Origin: a bacterium | GTDB lineage: Bacteria; Arandabacterota; Arandabacteria; Arandabacterales; Arandabacteraceae | Direction of reading: 5' to 3' | DNA length: 64,000 bases | Assembly: GCA_029933125.1 (NCBI GenBank) | Contig: JAOZOU010000001.1 | Coordinates: 194,073-258,072 of the forward strand | Shown here: one piece after another, positions 19,166 to 36,488 of the stretch | Numbering within the stretch: position 1 is the stretch's first letter | Layout: each line of letters starts with the position of its first letter | Made by a program: the position numbers and the translations under genes | Notes under the pieces: model-generated | What the model saw: the letters and a program-made list of their open reading frames with translations, nothing else | The model's database searches: none | Told to the model about the DNA's origin: nothing

Positions 19166-19228
19166 AAAGATAAAAGGAGATACTGAAAAGATAAAAGGAG
19201 ATACTGAAAAGATAAAAGGAGATACTGA
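19166..19228 (+). repeat. Three perfect 21-bp tandem repeats carrying the ribosome-binding site
   Basis: The unit AAAGATAAAAGGAGATACTG+A occurs three times with no mismatch. Each copy contains AAGGAGA; the last copy places it correctly before the ATG, and its final A is the first base of the start codon. The mRNA leader would consist almost wholly of three identical ribosome-binding sites. Each of the first two copies ends in TGA followed by AA, so neither provides its own ATG. Confidence 0.95.
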
Positions 19229-19755
19229 TGAGACACAAATTGGTAATTTTGCTAATCGCTGTAATTGCCGCATGTTCAACATGCAGACCCTCCAAGGCTA
19301 CGAGGCTCGATATTGGTATGAAGGCGCCAAGCTTTGTGCTTGAAGACATGCTTGGAAACGGGCAAGTCAATTCGTCCAAGGTCTTTTACTACAACCGTGC
19401 AACGGTCGTGGTTATATGGAGCATGACATGCCCAACCTGCCGACAAGCTCTTCTTGAGGTCCAACACCTTTACGAAAAATACTCACCAAAAGCAGTAGCC
19501 TTCCTTGGGATAAACTACGACATTGAAAATATTCAGGGAGTTAAAGCCTTTGTAAAAGGTGAGCGAATCGGCTTCCCTATGCTCTGGGACAAGCGAGCGC
19601 GTGTTGCAAAATCATATCGGGCAGCTGACTACACCTTCAGCATTTTCATCGTGGATGAGAATGGGCGGATAGCACTTGCCCAGTACGATCATCCCCCCGA
19701 TCTCGAGCAACGCATAAGCCGTAAGCTCGATGCCCTGCTCAAGCGACAAAAGTGA
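19228..19755 (+). CDS. TlpA-like thiol:disulfide thioredoxin, membrane-anchored or lipoprotein
   Basis: 175 residues. The N-terminal hydrophobic segment ends in AACST, which may be a weak lipobox or a signal anchor. The thioredoxin fold carries IWSMTCPTCRQ, with the redox pair CPTC near residues 70-73, then GINYDIENI and a YTFSIFIVDENG strand. A Phe-Ser stands where the usual cis-Pro precedes the last strand. The family reduces or resolves disulfides outside the cytoplasm. It is the first gene of an operon with a barrel protein and a DUF1573 lipoprotein. Its expression may depend on the triplicated leader repeat. Confidence 0.85.
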   Translation: MRHKLVILLIAVIAACSTCRPSKATRLDIGMKAPSFVLEDMLGNGQVNSSKVFYYNRATVVVIWSMTCPTCRQALLEVQHLYEKYSPKAVAFLGINYDIENIQGVKAFVKGERIGFPMLWDKRARVAKSYRAADYTFSIFIVDENGRIALAQYDHPPDLEQRISRKLDALLKRQK

Positions 19756-27854: not shown

Positions 27855-29402
27855 ATGAAAGCATTCAGGAATGAGCAGCTAACCAATTTTCGCTCGCCAA
27901 AGAACAGAAAACTCATGGAGAGTGCTCTCAGAAAGGTTGAGCGCTCACTCGGCAGGGAATACCCAATAATAATCGGTGGCAAGCACATCCGTATGCGAAG
28001 CAAGTTCAGATCAATAAATCCTGCCGACCCGGATCAAGTTGTTGGCATTTTTCAGAAGGCAGATTCCAAGGTTGCAACAAAAGCAATAGAGACTGCTCTT
28101 AAGACATTCGAGTGGTGGAAATTTGAGAAGCCTGAGAAGCGAGCAAGCTACCTTTTCAAGATGGCTAGGATAATGAGACGCCGAAGGCTCGAGCTTGCTG
28201 CCTGGATGGTCTATGAGGTTGGCAAGTCATGGGCTGAAGCAGATGCTGATGTTGCTGAGGCTATTGACTTCTGTGAATTCTACGGTCGCGAAGCCATACG
28301 CTATGGTGGACCCCAACCCATAACCCACATTCCGACCGAGCGCAGTGAGCTCGTCTATATCCCACTCGGAGTGGGTGCAGTTATACCTCCATGGAATTTC
28401 CCCCTTGCCATTCTAACCGGCATGACAACTGCCTCCTTCGTAAGTGGAAATACCGTTGTGCTCAAGCCCTCAAGTGATGCACCGACGATCGCTGCGAAGT
28501 TTATGGAGGTTGTTGAGCAGGCGGGAGTGCCTGATGGCGTTGTTAACTATGTCACGGGCCCAGGTAGAATCGCGGGCGAGGTACTCGTTCAGCATCCCAA
28601 AACAAGATTCGTAGCTTTTACAGGTTCGAAAGAGGTGGGTCTGAGGATAAATGAGGTTGCAGCTAAACTCCAACATGGTCAGATCTGGATCAAGCGTGCT
28701 GTCCTTGAGATGGGTGGCAAGGATGCCATAATCGTTGACAACGAGGCAGATATCGACGACGCGGTTACTGGTGTTGTCGCTTCAGCCTATGGCTTCCAGG
28801 GTCAGAAGTGCTCCGCCTGCTCACGCGCAATTGTTGTCAAGGATGTATATAAGACCTTCCTTGATAAGTTGATACCCCAGGTCCAGGCGATTGAGGTTGG
28901 ACCTCCAAGGGATTACAACAACTGGATGGGACCCGTCATAAATCGAGGAGCTATGAACAGCATTCTCAACTACATTCGCATCGGTAAGAAGGAGGGTCGT
29001 CTCCTTACAGGCGGTTCTCGCATCCCGCGCAAAGGCTATTTCATTCAGCCAACTGTGATTGCTGATGTCAAGCCTGATGCAACCATAGCGCAGGAAGAGA
29101 TCTTTGGACCTGTTCTTGCGGTGATAAAAGCACGCAACTTTGATCACGCCCTCGAGATCGCAAATGGCACGGTTTATGGGTTGACTGGCGCTGTTTACAC
29201 AAAGAATCGCAAGAAGATCGAGGCTGCCAAGAAGCACTTCCATGTAGGTAATCTCTACTTCAACCGCAAGTGCACAGGGGCCTTGGTTGGCGTGCATCCC
29301 TTTGGAGGATTCAATCTCTCGGGAACCGATTCGAAGGCCGGTGGCAGAGACTATCTCCTCCTTTTCTTACAGGCAAAGTCAATGTCTGAGAAGGTCAAGT
29401 GA
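27855..29402 (+). CDS. rocA: L-glutamate gamma-semialdehyde (1-pyrroline-5-carboxylate) dehydrogenase
   Basis: 515 residues, the length of RocA/PruA-type enzymes. GGAGGGGATAAAGG precedes the ATG. Aldehyde dehydrogenase motifs: PPWNFPLAIL (substrate/NAD pocket), the NAD-binding FTGSKEVG, the general base in LEMGGKDA and the nucleophile Cys in FQGQKCSACSR. The N-terminus (LTNFRSPKNRKLMESALRKV) is typical of the P5C dehydrogenase subgroup. It oxidises glutamate semialdehyde to glutamate with NAD(P). No proline dehydrogenase is adjacent; a different aldehyde substrate is possible. Confidence 0.85.
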   Translation: MKAFRNEQLTNFRSPKNRKLMESALRKVERSLGREYPIIIGGKHIRMRSKFRSINPADPDQVVGIFQKADSKVATKAIETALKTFEWWKFEKPEKRASYLFKMARIMRRRRLELAAWMVYEVGKSWAEADADVAEAIDFCEFYGREAIRYGGPQPITHIPTERSELVYIPLGVGAVIPPWNFPLAILTGMTTASFVSGNTVVLKPSSDAPTIAAKFMEVVEQAGVPDGVVNYVTGPGRIAGEVLVQHPKTRFVAFTGSKEVGLRINEVAAKLQHGQIWIKRAVLEMGGKDAIIVDNEADIDDAVTGVVASAYGFQGQKCSACSRAIVVKDVYKTFLDKLIPQVQAIEVGPPRDYNNWMGPVINRGAMNSILNYIRIGKKEGRLLTGGSRIPRKGYFIQPTVIADVKPDATIAQEEIFGPVLAVIKARNFDHALEIANGTVYGLTGAVYTKNRKKIEAAKKHFHVGNLYFNRKCTGALVGVHPFGGFNLSGTDSKAGGRDYLLLFLQAKSMSEKVK

Positions 29403-29421
29403 ACTTTCGCAGGAGGCGCTT

Positions 29422-30678
29422 ATGCGATCAGGCTTATGGATTCTCATTGTCGTGATAATCGCCGGGCTCGTTGTTGGTACCCTGCTTAAGCAGAGGCTTG
29501 AGAAGATGGAGATGAGTGGCGAGTTTTCGAAGCTTCAGGAAATAACCCAGATAGAGGATCCTCAAGTCAAGATATCTCGCCTCAAGCAATTCATCGCTGA
29601 GGAGCCACCCGGGCGTGAGAGGCAGTATGCCTATCGTGCGCTTGCTAGCGAGATGATTCAAACTGTAAAGGATACATCAGGCTTCGAGAATTTCGCTCAG
29701 ACAGCTCTTGATAAGGAAGATGACCCCTCAAGCCTGGCCATGATCTACTACTGGCTTTACAAGATAAGATCAGACTCTTCAAGTGTGAGAAAACTTGCAG
29801 GATCTTTGCTTGAAGGCAAGGAGGCTGCTTCCTGGATCTATAACTATATAAGCTGGGACCTGGCGGAGAAGTCACAAGACCTCGACATTGCTCTCGACCT
29901 CTGTGATCGCGCAATTGAGCTGGCAACTGAAAGGATGGACAGCGCAAGCTATATCGACACCAAAGGTTGGATATTCTTCAGGCAAGGCAACTATGATGAG
30001 GCAGTAAAGTATCTCGAGACAGCCGTGAGTCTTCTCGAAGAGCCTGAGGAAGAGATCCTACGGCATCTTGCCTATGCCAGTCTGGCAGCTGGCGATGGAG
30101 ACAAGGCTTTCAAGACCTTTAAGTCGATTCTGATTCTAGGCGAATATGACTATGCAAGATCTGCTCTCGACTCCTTGATGACTGCTCGGGGCTATACGCC
30201 ACAACAGCGGAAACAATTTGATGAGGCTATCTGGAAGGAAAGGATGGCATCTGCCAGGTTCGCTGATGCCTTTACGCTTCCTATGCTGTCAGGGGGAAAT
30301 TATGAGTTCAAGCCTCCCCTTGATGAAGTGACAGTGATAAACTTTACAGCTCCTGGCTGACCTGCCTGCTTTGCGGAGTTGCCGCATCTAGAGAATATGC
30401 ATAGGGAGCTTGATGATCAGGGTGTCGATATTGTCGTCATTGATGCAACTAACAGCAGGGACCTTATGGAAAAGATCGTCAGGGATGATTCTCTTACATT
30501 ACGAATACTTTTAGATGATAAGCAAATCGCTGATAAGAATTACAATCTCATGGCCACTCCAACCACGCTGATCGTTGATCGTGGCGGGCGCATAGTTTTC
30601 AAGCACATCGGATTCAGCCCTGGCATGGAAGAAATGCTTACCAAAGAAATCCAGGAACTGCTCAAGCTCCCAACATGA
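29422..30678 (+). CDS. TPR-thioredoxin protein with probable selenocysteine (UPAC) active site
   Basis: Read through one in-frame TGA (30358-30360), this is a 418-residue protein. The ATG at 29422 has AGGAGG five bases upstream. A signal anchor (LWILIVVIIAGLVVG) is followed by helical TPR-like repeats (about 60-280). A C-terminal thioredoxin domain begins at VTVINFTAPG, residue 313 is the TGA, then PACFAELPHLE. The active site therefore reads U-P-A-C where relatives have C-x-x-C. A cis-Pro loop (MATPTTLIVD) lies downstream. The frame stays open for 106 codons after the TGA with clear family features, which argues against a random nonsense mutation. Other genes here use TGA as stop. It follows rocA by 19 bp, likely in the same operon. 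Confidence 0.82.
30361..30386 (+). promoter_or_regulatory. SECIS-like hairpin after the UGA codon
   Basis: TGCGG (30372-30376) pairs with CCGCA (30382-30386) around a five-base loop AGTTG. The loop begins 16 bases after the UGA and has G as its second base. Bacterial SECIS elements have a short stem of at least four pairs, a loop with G in one of its first two positions, and a loop 16 or more bases from the UGA, so all three criteria are met, the distance at its lower limit. Confidence 0.6.
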
Positions 30679-30744
30679 TCTGCTCTGGCTTCACAGACAT
30701 CGCCAGGTGCAGAGCCTCAAGGCTTTGTACTTGTGGCTTCTTGT

Positions 30745-31201
30745 TCAGTGCTGCCAAAATCTGTCACCGTACGTTGAGAAAATAGACAGCCACCCTCGCC
30801 TACTACCCTGGCTGCCTCGGTGAGTAGATCTCTCTCGTCGAGCCAGAATGAACAGATGGCGTTCTGGATGCAGAGTACTATATCGAAGACTCCCCGAGCA
30901 AACCGAGCTCTGTTGCATCCATGACTGCAAGGTCACACTTTCCAGGTGGAAGAGTTTGCTGAGCAAGTTTGATATTGTCCGAGGATATATCGAACCCCAC
31001 GAGGCGCTCTGCTCAGGGTATAAAGCGCCGAAGAACGCGTCCATAGCCGCATCCCAGCTCGAGAATTCGAGCCCTTCCTTGTATTTGCTCAAGCACATAG
31101 GAGATTTCCACCTCGAAGTATCGTCTGACCCCTGGAGGTGCTATTTCATAGCATCTTCTGAGTCTCTCACCTGAAAGATGCCCGTCATAATAGTTTTACA
31201 T
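30745..31201 (-). pseudogene. Dead class I SAM-dependent methyltransferase gene
   Basis: On the minus strand an AGAGAGGAG site precedes ATG, but codon 2 is TAA. The same frame then reads YYDGHLSGERLRRCYEIAPP and the SAM motif ARILELGCGYGRVLRRF, then an in-frame TGA (31015-31013). It continues AERLVGFDISSDNIKLAQQ and stops, while FDIVLCIQNAI appears in a shifted frame and STYGDRFWQH in another. Two nonsense codons and at least two frameshifts make this a pseudogene. The internal TGA is not a selenocysteine candidate, given the other lesions. Confidence 0.8.
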
Positions 31202-34569: not shown

Positions 34570-35943
34570 ATGGAAATTCAACTGAGCTTGAGATCACATG
34601 ATAGAATTGCTGTGAGCCTCGACTATAAGAGGAAGGAACCCCTGATCAAGAGATGGGATGTTAGCAGGTCTGTGATAGATGCCATCTATGCCGATGTCCT
34701 TGATCTCGTGGAAAGATCTCTCTATGTGGAAAATCTGGAAGTTGCTTCACCCCAGGCAGAGACCCGTGAGAAGCTTAAGGCTCTTGGACTTGCACTCTTT
34801 GAGGCAACGTTCCTTGCAGCTGCAGATGAATTCAGAGAGACAATTCGGCAACCGCATGGACCTGAATCGGTGACTTTTGAGATTGATCGTGAGCTGGCCT
34901 ATCTCCCGATTGAGATACTTTTCGACGGGGAAACTTTTCTAGCGCTAAGGCTGTCTCTTGGCAGACGCATCTTCGCTGAAGGGATTAGAAGCGTAGCCTC
35001 CGGAGCACGTACTTGCTCCGTACTTATTGTTGGGGATCCAAGTGATGATCCTTTGATAAGAAGTGACATTGAAAATGAGATAGATGGAATCAGGGATATC
35101 TTCAGAAAGAGCAAGGTGGCAATGAAAATTGCCACGGGTAGCAAAGTTGATGAGGGCTATTTCCTAACCCATCTTCCGAGCAAAACTATTTTCCATTTCA
35201 CAGGACATGGTGCTCTGTCTGAAGACTTTGCTACCTCCGGTATCATGCTTGCGGACGGTATTTTAAGCGAAAAGTCACTTTCAGGGCTTCAGCATCCGCC
35301 AGTCATTACCTTCCTCAACATGTGCACCGCATCCTGGCATGAAGCCTGGAAGAGCTCTGTTGGCCTTGTCGAGACTTTCTTGAGAAGAGGAACCCGGTGC
35401 TGCATAGCCACCCTCTGGGATGTCCGAAGCTCGTCTGCAGCAACGCTGGCCTCGAGCTTCTATGGGAATCTTCTTGATGGGAAGACTGTTGGAGAAGCTT
35501 TACGCCAAGCCAGGCTAGATGTGGTTGAAAAATTTGGCCTCAATGATATGTCCTGGGCAGCCTACACACTTTATGGTGACCCCAATGTTACGCTTGAGTC
35601 CCTGCTAAGAGAGTCACCCAGGAAATCTCCATCGTATGTTGTAGGTCTCGTCGCTACAGCTATCTTTGTTGGATCGCTCCTGCTTCCGTCTAGCATTTCA
35701 AGGGAACCGACGTATCAGGCAAGGACAGAATTCGGTTACATCGTCGCATCTTCAAATCCAAAGGGCGCCACGGTGATTGTTGACGGCAACCCCATGGCAG
35801 TAACCCCATCAGCCATTGAGGTTCCCGAAGGTAGCCACAAGGTAGCCATTGTGAAAGAGGGCTTCAGGCGCTGGGAGGCATGGGTAGAGGTAACACCTTC
35901 GCAACGCACCGTGATTGAAGCAACGCTGGAGGGAATTCAATGA
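34570..35943 (+). CDS. CHAT-domain cysteine peptidase with membrane segment and PEGA domain
   Basis: 457 residues. An N-terminal region of ~110 residues is unassigned. The CHAT (caspase-like) peptidase domain spans about 110-345, with the catalytic His in FHFTGHG (about 216) and the catalytic Cys in FLNMCTAS (about 256). Then ATLWDV and the AAYTLYGDP signature. One membrane segment (VVGLVATAIFVGSLLLPSS, about 357-375) is followed by a C-terminal PEGA beta domain (SSNPKGATVIVDG, VPEGSHKVAIVKEGF). Peptidase inside, PEGA outside is the likely topology. It heads a four-gene operon with redoxin, sigma and anti-sigma genes, and the redoxin ATG overlaps its stop. Confidence 0.88.
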   Translation: MEIQLSLRSHDRIAVSLDYKRKEPLIKRWDVSRSVIDAIYADVLDLVERSLYVENLEVASPQAETREKLKALGLALFEATFLAAADEFRETIRQPHGPESVTFEIDRELAYLPIEILFDGETFLALRLSLGRRIFAEGIRSVASGARTCSVLIVGDPSDDPLIRSDIENEIDGIRDIFRKSKVAMKIATGSKVDEGYFLTHLPSKTIFHFTGHGALSEDFATSGIMLADGILSEKSLSGLQHPPVITFLNMCTASWHEAWKSSVGLVETFLRRGTRCCIATLWDVRSSSAATLASSFYGNLLDGKTVGEALRQARLDVVEKFGLNDMSWAAYTLYGDPNVTLESLLRESPRKSPSYVVGLVATAIFVGSLLLPSSISREPTYQARTEFGYIVASSNPKGATVIVDGNPMAVTPSAIEVPEGSHKVAIVKEGFRRWEAWVEVTPSQRTVIEATLEGIQ

Positions 35944-36488
35944 AGCTTTCCATCATTGCTCTCCTATTGCTCCTTTTTCCTCAAAACCTCTTTGCCACCG
36001 AAACTGATCTCAGCAACTTTGCCCTCGTCGATCTATGGGATAATAGCCACAAGATCAGTGAAATATCTCAGGGCAAAACTCTCCTCATCTACCTCTGTAA
36101 GCCCGAACTAAGCGAATGTCGTGAGGGGGCGATTTATTTCGAGAGCCTTGCATTCAGGATAAGGGCAAAGGGTGCCGAGCCAATTTGTGTTTTTCTCGGG
36201 AAGCCTGAGCAAGTTAGAGATGTGGCAGTTGATCTTGGCCTTCGAATGCCCGTATTCATTGATCCCAGTGGCTCCTTCTTTGGAGCTGCGCTTGACCAAA
36301 GGATACTCCCAGCCTTGATTGCGATTGATACCAAAGGAAGAAGAATCGCAACCGTTTACGGAGGTGGGGATGCTCTTGCGACAAATCTTGATGTCATCCT
36401 GGCAAAGATCTCGCGTGATCACAAGTGGCTCTTGATAACTCTCATCGCAGTGGTTACGACTACGATAGTCTTGATCTTAACGAGATGA
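35940..36488 (+). CDS. Exported redoxin-like protein with C-terminal membrane anchor
   Basis: 182 residues. A signal peptide (LSIIALLLLLFPQNLFA) precedes a thioredoxin/AhpC-TSA-like fold: FALVDLWDNSHKISEI, then YLCKPELSECREGAI with two Cys seven apart, not CxxC. A cis-Pro-like PALIAIDTKG strand follows, then a C-terminal membrane segment (WLLITLIAVVTTTIVLILT). It is coupled to the CHAT gene by an ATGA overlap and lies 14 bp before the sigma gene. It could sense oxidants or thiol state for the module; this is an inference from context. Confidence 0.72.
   Translation: MKLSIIALLLLLFPQNLFATETDLSNFALVDLWDNSHKISEISQGKTLLIYLCKPELSECREGAIYFESLAFRIRAKGAEPICVFLGKPEQVRDVAVDLGLRMPVFIDPSGSFFGAALDQRILPALIAIDTKGRRIATVYGGGDALATNLDVILAKISRDHKWLLITLIAVVTTTIVLILTR

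What the first reader, a model, noticed from the sequence alone, without database searches (positions are those of the whole stretch)
29422..30678. Candidate selenoprotein: TPR-thioredoxin with UPAC active site
An in-frame TGA (30358-30360) replaces the first Cys of the thioredoxin CxxC motif. The frame stays intact for 106 codons after it, with PACFAELPHLE and a cis-Pro loop. A hairpin (TGCGG/CCGCA, loop AGTTG) lies 16 bases after the UGA with G at loop position 2, as bacterial SECIS elements need. Automatic annotation would cut the protein at the UGA and lose the redox domain. The fusion of an N-terminal signal anchor and TPR array to a U-x-x-C thioredoxin domain looks unusual.
Basis: partly seen in the sequence, partly recalled or inferred. 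Interest (0 to 1): 0.88.

Follow-up and report, generated by a model that had tools for sequence, protein, structure and literature searches.

The report
Membrane-anchored TPR–thioredoxin selenoprotein
A bacterial membrane-anchored protein-binding (TPR) protein carries a thioredoxin-like redox domain whose key cysteine is replaced by selenocysteine, encoded by a UGA that ordinary annotation would read as a stop; the same arrangement recurs in relatives inside and outside its phylum, which makes a chance stop codon very unlikely.

Summary
The finding holds. The frame 29422-30678 has one in-frame TGA (30358-30360) at the first position of a UxxC motif in a TlpA/ResA-type thioredoxin domain, followed by 105 open codons. 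The genome has selA, selB, selD and tRNA-Sec(UCA). Two orthologues from other genera of the same family, about 48% identical, keep the TGA; a third has Cys. Outside the phylum, two more genomes carry the same anchor/TPR/TlpA architecture with TGA at the same codon, and three have Cys. A hairpin whose loop starts 16 nt after the UGA sits in the same register in all five Sec genes, and three of its six base pairs show compensatory changes. It is a relic in one Cys gene and absent in the other three. Purifying selection is similar on both sides of the UGA. I call it a real selenoprotein: a new subfamily of a known kind (Sec-containing TlpA-like UxxC oxidoreductases). The TPR fusion was not found in the 2026 review, nor over any NCBIfam cut-off. 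Redox function, periplasmic location and the TPR partner are inferred, not shown. The hairpin alone would have been weak evidence: 7% of all TGAs in the window have one as good.

The parts
29422..30678 (+). Whole selenoprotein gene (418 residues, Sec at 313, TGA stop at 30676-30678); AGGAGG ribosome-binding-like site at 29411-29416
   Evidence: orthologues at 48% identity over the full length
29434..29487 (+). N-terminal hydrophobic membrane anchor (residues about 5-22), in a nearly invariant MxSGLWIL start
   Evidence: alignment; predicted helix 3-30
29518..30249 (+). All-helical TPR-like domain (residues about 33-276)
   Evidence: Pfam TPR_12/TPR_2; helical array in the AlphaFold model, pLDDT mostly above 90
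30262..30666 (+). TlpA/ResA-type thioredoxin-fold domain (residues 281-415)
   Evidence: Pfam AhpC-TSA/Redoxin; Foldseek top hits 3gl3 and ResA, TM by target 0.84-0.89
30358..30360 (+). In-frame TGA read as selenocysteine 313, first residue of UxxC
   Evidence: TGA in G003, G004, G076, G217; Cys in G005, G346, G137, G274
30367..30369 (+). Resolving Cys316 codon (second residue of UxxC)
   Evidence: replaced by Ser in the Cys form of G005
30372..30386 (+). Bacterial SECIS hairpin UGCGG-AGUUG-CCGCA, loop 30377-30381
   Evidence: same register in five Sec genes, compensatory changes at three of six pairs; synonymous-codon tests
30559..30561 (+). cis-Pro codon (Pro380 of the TPTT loop)
   Evidence: invariant Pro in the and alignments; cis conformation inferred from the thioredoxin fold
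27855..29402 (+). Upstream neighbour: L-glutamate gamma-semialdehyde dehydrogenase (P5C dehydrogenase), directly before the selenoprotein gene in every genome of the phylum where the junction can be read
   Evidence: TIGR01237 over cut-off; same order in L065, L066, L067, L068, L077
26615..27805 (+). Glycine C-acetyltransferase (kbl), conserved next neighbour
   Evidence: TIGR01822 over cut-off; same order in L065, L066, L068

Best explanation
The gene encodes a selenoprotein: an N-terminal membrane anchor, a TPR helical domain and a TlpA/ResA-type thioredoxin domain with active site U313-P-A-C316. The UGA is decoded by tRNA-Sec(UCA) and SelB, guided by a SECIS hairpin overlapping codons 317-322. 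Supported by sequence comparison: the conserved UGA/Cys column, the conserved and covarying hairpin, selection across the UGA, and the presence of all four sel genes. Inferred: the thioredoxin domain faces the periplasm, Sec313 is the attacking nucleophile and Cys316 resolves, the protein reduces (or isomerises) disulfides of a client held by the TPR domain, and electrons come from a CcdA/DsbD-type membrane carrier. Without selenium, translation would stop at residue 312 and leave an anchored TPR protein with no redox domain.
For: selB 398 bits over cut-off, selA 580 bits, selD, tRNA-Sec 76.6 bits with UCA anticodon. TGA kept at the same codon in G003, G004, G076 and G217, and all four genomes have selB over cut-off. 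Cys at that column in G005, G346, G137, G274; G137 and G274 show no selB. pN 0.31-0.35 downstream against 0.34-0.36 upstream for the window versus G004/G003, pS 0.79-0.89. Hairpin: 29 of 30 cells paired, three of six pairs with double changes, covariation score reached by 3/500 shuffles; synonymous-codon P 0.003, 0.001, 0.002, 0.08, 0.005. Model pLDDT 87.4, ResA/TlpA fold. CcdA-like gene in G000 and G004. TGA is also a normal stop in 14 of 39 ORFs, so no reassigned code.
Against: No protein-level evidence. The genomes of the window's phylum are all multi-contig assemblies. The window's own hairpin is the shortest (5 bp) and folds no better than shuffles when taken alone. The DsbD_TM search found nothing in G003 (94% complete) or G005 (73%), so the electron donor is uncertain. 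The charge pattern around the anchor does not settle topology. The Cys form of G005 lacks the resolving Cys (CGPS), so a simple dithiol mechanism may not hold throughout.
Confidence: 0.85

Rival explanations
1. The TGA is a genuine stop or an inactivating mutation: a 312-residue anchored TPR protein is made and the thioredoxin part is a decaying relic or a separate gene.
For: Standard use of TGA as a stop elsewhere; the truncated product would still contain the anchor and TPR domain.
Against: The same TGA survives in five genera, inside and outside the phylum, at 48% identity and lower. Downstream codons evolve about as slowly as upstream ones. Cys occupies the column in the rest of the family. 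The hairpin covaries.
Confidence: 0.02
2. Sequencing or assembly error: the true codon is TGC or TGT.
For: Reads were not available; related records are metagenome-derived.
Against: The identical TGA is found in independent assemblies of four other genera, all with selB.
Confidence: 0.01
3. It is a selenoprotein, but acts mainly as a peroxidase, a cytoplasmic reductase, a sensor or an isomerase, not as a periplasmic TlpA/ResA-like reductant.
For: Pfam's best hit is AhpC-TSA; the anchor's charges do not fix the topology; the G005 Cys form lost the second Cys.
Against: Closest solved folds are ResA, DsbE and StoA types, which from general knowledge are extracytoplasmic thiol-disulfide oxidoreductases; UxxC rather than the TxxU of Sec peroxiredoxins; N-terminal anchor conserved.
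Confidence: 0.25
4. The hairpin conservation is only a by-product of the conserved AELPHLE peptide, and Sec insertion uses another signal.
For: The stem codes for the conserved peptide; 59% of TGAs have some hairpin; the synonymous test is not significant for G076.
Against: Synonymous-codon controls keep the peptide fixed and still give P of 0.001-0.005 in four of five Sec genes. Rare GCG and CCG codons are used in the window (0.12 and 0.15). The Cys genes G346, G137 and G274 lack the hairpin.
Confidence: 0.05

Closest known systems
Sec-containing TlpA/ResA-like and 'Prx-like thiol:disulfide oxidoreductase' selenoproteins (UxxC; cd02966, PF00578, PF08534 rows in the review PMC13188914)
   Same: Thioredoxin-like domain with Sec at the first position of UxxC, Cys homologues, bacterial SECIS downstream.
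   Different: No TPR fusion was seen in the review ('TPR' occurs 0 times in its text); this protein has a membrane anchor and about 240 residues of helical TPR-like domain before the redox domain.
ResA / DsbE / StoA (Bacillus subtilis ResA; Chlorobium tepidum 3gl3)
   Same: Same thioredoxin fold (TM 0.84-0.89 by target).
   Different: Cys in place of Sec, no TPR domain; only 55.9 bits against the 170-bit ResA cut-off.
NCBIfam NF041054 WAxxUGC_long and NF053656 TUGYCR (seleno)protein families
   Same: TlpA/thioredoxin-fold families with a Sec-bearing motif in their names.
   Different: About 17 bits against cut-offs of 300 and 100; different motif.
Cys TPR-TlpA fusions (G137, G274, G346 here)
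   Same: Anchor, TPR and TlpA in the same order, alignable end to end.
   Different: Cys instead of Sec and no hairpin.

Membership tests
Bacterial selenoprotein | In-frame UGA at a column that is Cys in homologues | tested here: met
   Sec codon in five genes, Cys in four
Bacterial selenoprotein | selA, selB, selD and tRNA-Sec in the same genome | tested here: met
Bacterial selenoprotein | bSECIS model of PMC13188914: 3-9 nt loop, 4-16 bp stem, G in first two loop positions, 16-37 nt from UGA to loop | tested here: met
   5-nt loop AGUUG, 5 bp, spacing 16; rules
Bacterial selenoprotein | Minimum free energy of the element at or below -7.5 kcal/mol | tested here: met
   -7.7 for the 42-nt and -11.1 for the 53-nt piece; borderline for the shorter piece
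Bacterial selenoprotein | Selenium or Sec detected in the protein | not testable with these tools
   needs mass spectrometry or 75Se labelling
TlpA/ResA-like thiol-disulfide oxidoreductase | Thioredoxin fold of the AhpC-TSA/Redoxin type with CxxC/UxxC and cis-Pro | tested here: met
TlpA/ResA-like thiol-disulfide oxidoreductase | Extracytoplasmic location | tested here: inconclusive
   one N-terminal hydrophobic helix present; topology not determined
TlpA/ResA-like thiol-disulfide oxidoreductase | Disulfide reductase activity | not testable with these tools
   needs an enzyme assay
ResA (NCBIfam NF002854) | Score over curated cut-off | tested here: not met
   55.9 of 170 bits
NF041054 WAxxUGC_long ResA-like family | Score over curated cut-off | tested here: not met
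   17.2 of 300 bits
Sec peroxiredoxin (TxxU) | TxxU motif | tested here: not met
   motif is GUPAC; the genome's Sec peroxiredoxin is elsewhere with TFVUPTE

The most novel reading that the evidence does not exclude
A previously undescribed selenoprotein family: membrane-anchored TPR-TlpA proteins with Sec shared by lineages inside and outside the window's phylum, ancestrally Sec with repeated Sec-to-Cys replacement (G005, G346), in which selenium supply decides whether the TPR anchor carries a redox domain.
Probability: 0.6. Interest if true: 0.6.

Novelty: new member of a known kind. Interest (0 to 1): 0.52.

Why it matters
It adds a conserved subfamily, which standard gene calling would cut at the UGA, to the bacterial selenoproteome, in a phylum with few genomes. 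It gives a natural set of Sec and Cys versions, including one Cys version with a relic SECIS that also lost the resolving Cys, in which the cost and benefit of Sec can be tested. It also shows how gene callers would drop the redox domain of a membrane protein in every such genome.

Tried and rejected
Reassigned genetic code (TGA=Trp): rejected, TGA ends 14 of 39 larger ORFs including the gene just upstream. Hairpin alone as proof: rejected, too common and not more stable than shuffles in the window. A first pair count on four rows (three Sec plus the G005 Cys form) was inconclusive, with covariation no better than shuffles, and one row's coordinates were 9 nt off; it was replaced by the count on the five Sec genes, two of which were found later. 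Rfam: no hit in the window at gathering thresholds. Plasmids: no record covers most of the query, the listed hits are generic TlpA/ResA-like. Papers joining selenocysteine with TPR and TlpA, or with Eisenbacteria: none in the library. Absence of the gene in G001, G002 and G006 looked meaningful but is not: the contigs end before or inside the gene.

Full report
What is there. Window 29422-30678 (+) is one frame interrupted only by TGA at 30358-30360; read as Sec it gives 418 residues with motif APG-U-PAC-FAELPHLE. An AGGAGG box lies at 29411-29416. Pfam finds TPR repeats and an AhpC-TSA/Redoxin domain running through the TGA. An AlphaFold model from the window protein and four related sequences (mean pLDDT 87.4) shows an N-terminal helix, a helical array and a thioredoxin fold, whose best solved matches are DsbE-like 3gl3 and ResA.

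Machinery. The window's genome (96.7% complete) has selB (630 aa), selA, tRNA-Sec with UCA anticodon directly downstream of a selD whose own active site is CAG-U, and a second selD fused behind a cysteine desulfurase. A Sec peroxiredoxin (TFVUPTE) is also present.

Orthologues in the phylum. Only eight genomes of the phylum are held. G004 and G003 have TGA at the same codon (TUGPC, TUDPC) at 48% identity; G005 has TCGPS. Contigs of the same lengths in the named collection are JALGZP010000031, JALGWN010000061 and JAUXGG010000244 (the last labelled Candidatus Eisenbacteria). In every genome where the junction can be read the gene directly follows P5C dehydrogenase, usually with kbl before that. 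In G001, G002 and G006 the contig ends before or inside the gene, so nothing can be said about their active site. Upstream and downstream of the UGA the proteins evolve at similar rates, with pN well under pS (pS is near saturation, so this is a comparison, not a dN/dS estimate).

Beyond the phylum. A profile search of 386 genomes found five further anchor-TPR-TlpA proteins. G076 and G217 have TGA (FWSYG-U-GPC, FWGAG-U-GPC); G346 of the same family has Cys; G137 and G274 of another family have Cys. selB is over cut-off in G076, G217 and G346 and not found in G137 and G274. The nine proteins align from anchor to C terminus with all Sec/Cys in one column. In the protein tree each of the two Cys genes in Sec lineages (G005, G346) pairs with a Sec gene; a tree of kbl plus P5CDH, read with G006 as the distant member, also nests G005 among Sec genomes, with support around 88 and only part of G005 available. 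The simplest reading is two Sec-to-Cys replacements, though independent gains are not excluded.

SECIS. The review PMC13188914 gives the bacterial model. The window hairpin meets it: 5-nt loop with G second, UGA-to-loop spacing 16. Alone this is weak: 59% of TGAs in the window have a hairpin of the model and 7% one as strong. Across the five Sec genes it sits in exactly the same register; 29 of 30 pair cells are standard, and three of six pairs show changes on both sides (3 of 500 shuffles reach the covariation score; sliding the partners destroys it). One of these pairs couples Ala-to-Val (GCG to GTG) with CCG to CCA in G217. With the protein sequence held fixed, synonymous recoding gives stems as long in 0.3, 0.1, 0.2, 7.9 and 0.5% of draws (codon usage for G076 and G217 rests on little sequence, and the five genes are related, so the product should not be read as a probability). 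G005 (Cys) keeps a relic hairpin; G346, G137 and G274 do not have it.

How it most likely works. Sec insertion by SelB is strongly supported by comparison but not demonstrated experimentally. The rest is inference from the fold: a membrane-anchored, probably periplasmic TlpA/ResA-like reductant in which Sec313 attacks a client disulfide, Cys316 resolves, and the TPR domain holds the client. A CcdA/DsbD-type carrier exists in G000 and G004 but was not found in G003 or G005, so the electron donor is open. The G005 form with CGPS hints that the first residue matters more than the second.

Novelty. Sec TlpA-like UxxC proteins are known. No TPR fusion was found in that review, no NCBIfam model reaches its cut-off, and the library has no paper joining selenocysteine, tetratricopeptide and TlpA. 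I therefore call it a new member of a known kind; whether it is wholly undescribed cannot be settled with the sources here.

Noticed in passing
window 30690-31190, minus strand: Remnant of what looks like a class I SAM methyltransferase (ILELGCGYGRVLRR...) with an in-frame TGA at 31013-31015 and a later frameshift; L065 has only about 500 bases between the selenoprotein gene and nth. Looks like a decayed gene, not a second selenoprotein.
   Followed up: partly
L056:4973-7177 (G000 contig C76): A 734-aa fusion of a NifS/IscS-like cysteine desulfurase with SelD, beside a separate Sec-containing SelD next to tRNA-Sec on contig C171 (L055): two selenophosphate synthetases in one genome.
   Followed up: partly
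L087 (G000 C42:429774-430175); also L082 (G001) and L081 (G002): Sec peroxiredoxin with TFVUPTE motif, outside the window; another selenoprotein of this genome.
   Followed up: partly
L100 (G004 contig C24:35467-35835): TlpA-like domain with in-frame TGA in FGACW-U-PVV inside a long, apparently secreted protein; possible UxxV selenoprotein, seen in one genome only.
   Followed up: no
window 19228-19755 and 35940-36488: Two further AhpC-TSA/TlpA-type proteins in the same window.
   Followed up: no
L067:1339-2835 (G005): The Cys orthologue has an extra N-terminal block resembling a duplicated helical unit, and has Ser in place of the resolving Cys (CGPS).
   Followed up: partly
L066 (G003): The Sec orthologue lacks about 15 residues within the thioredoxin domain (after EEYRL); real deletion or assembly error not determined.
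   Followed up: no
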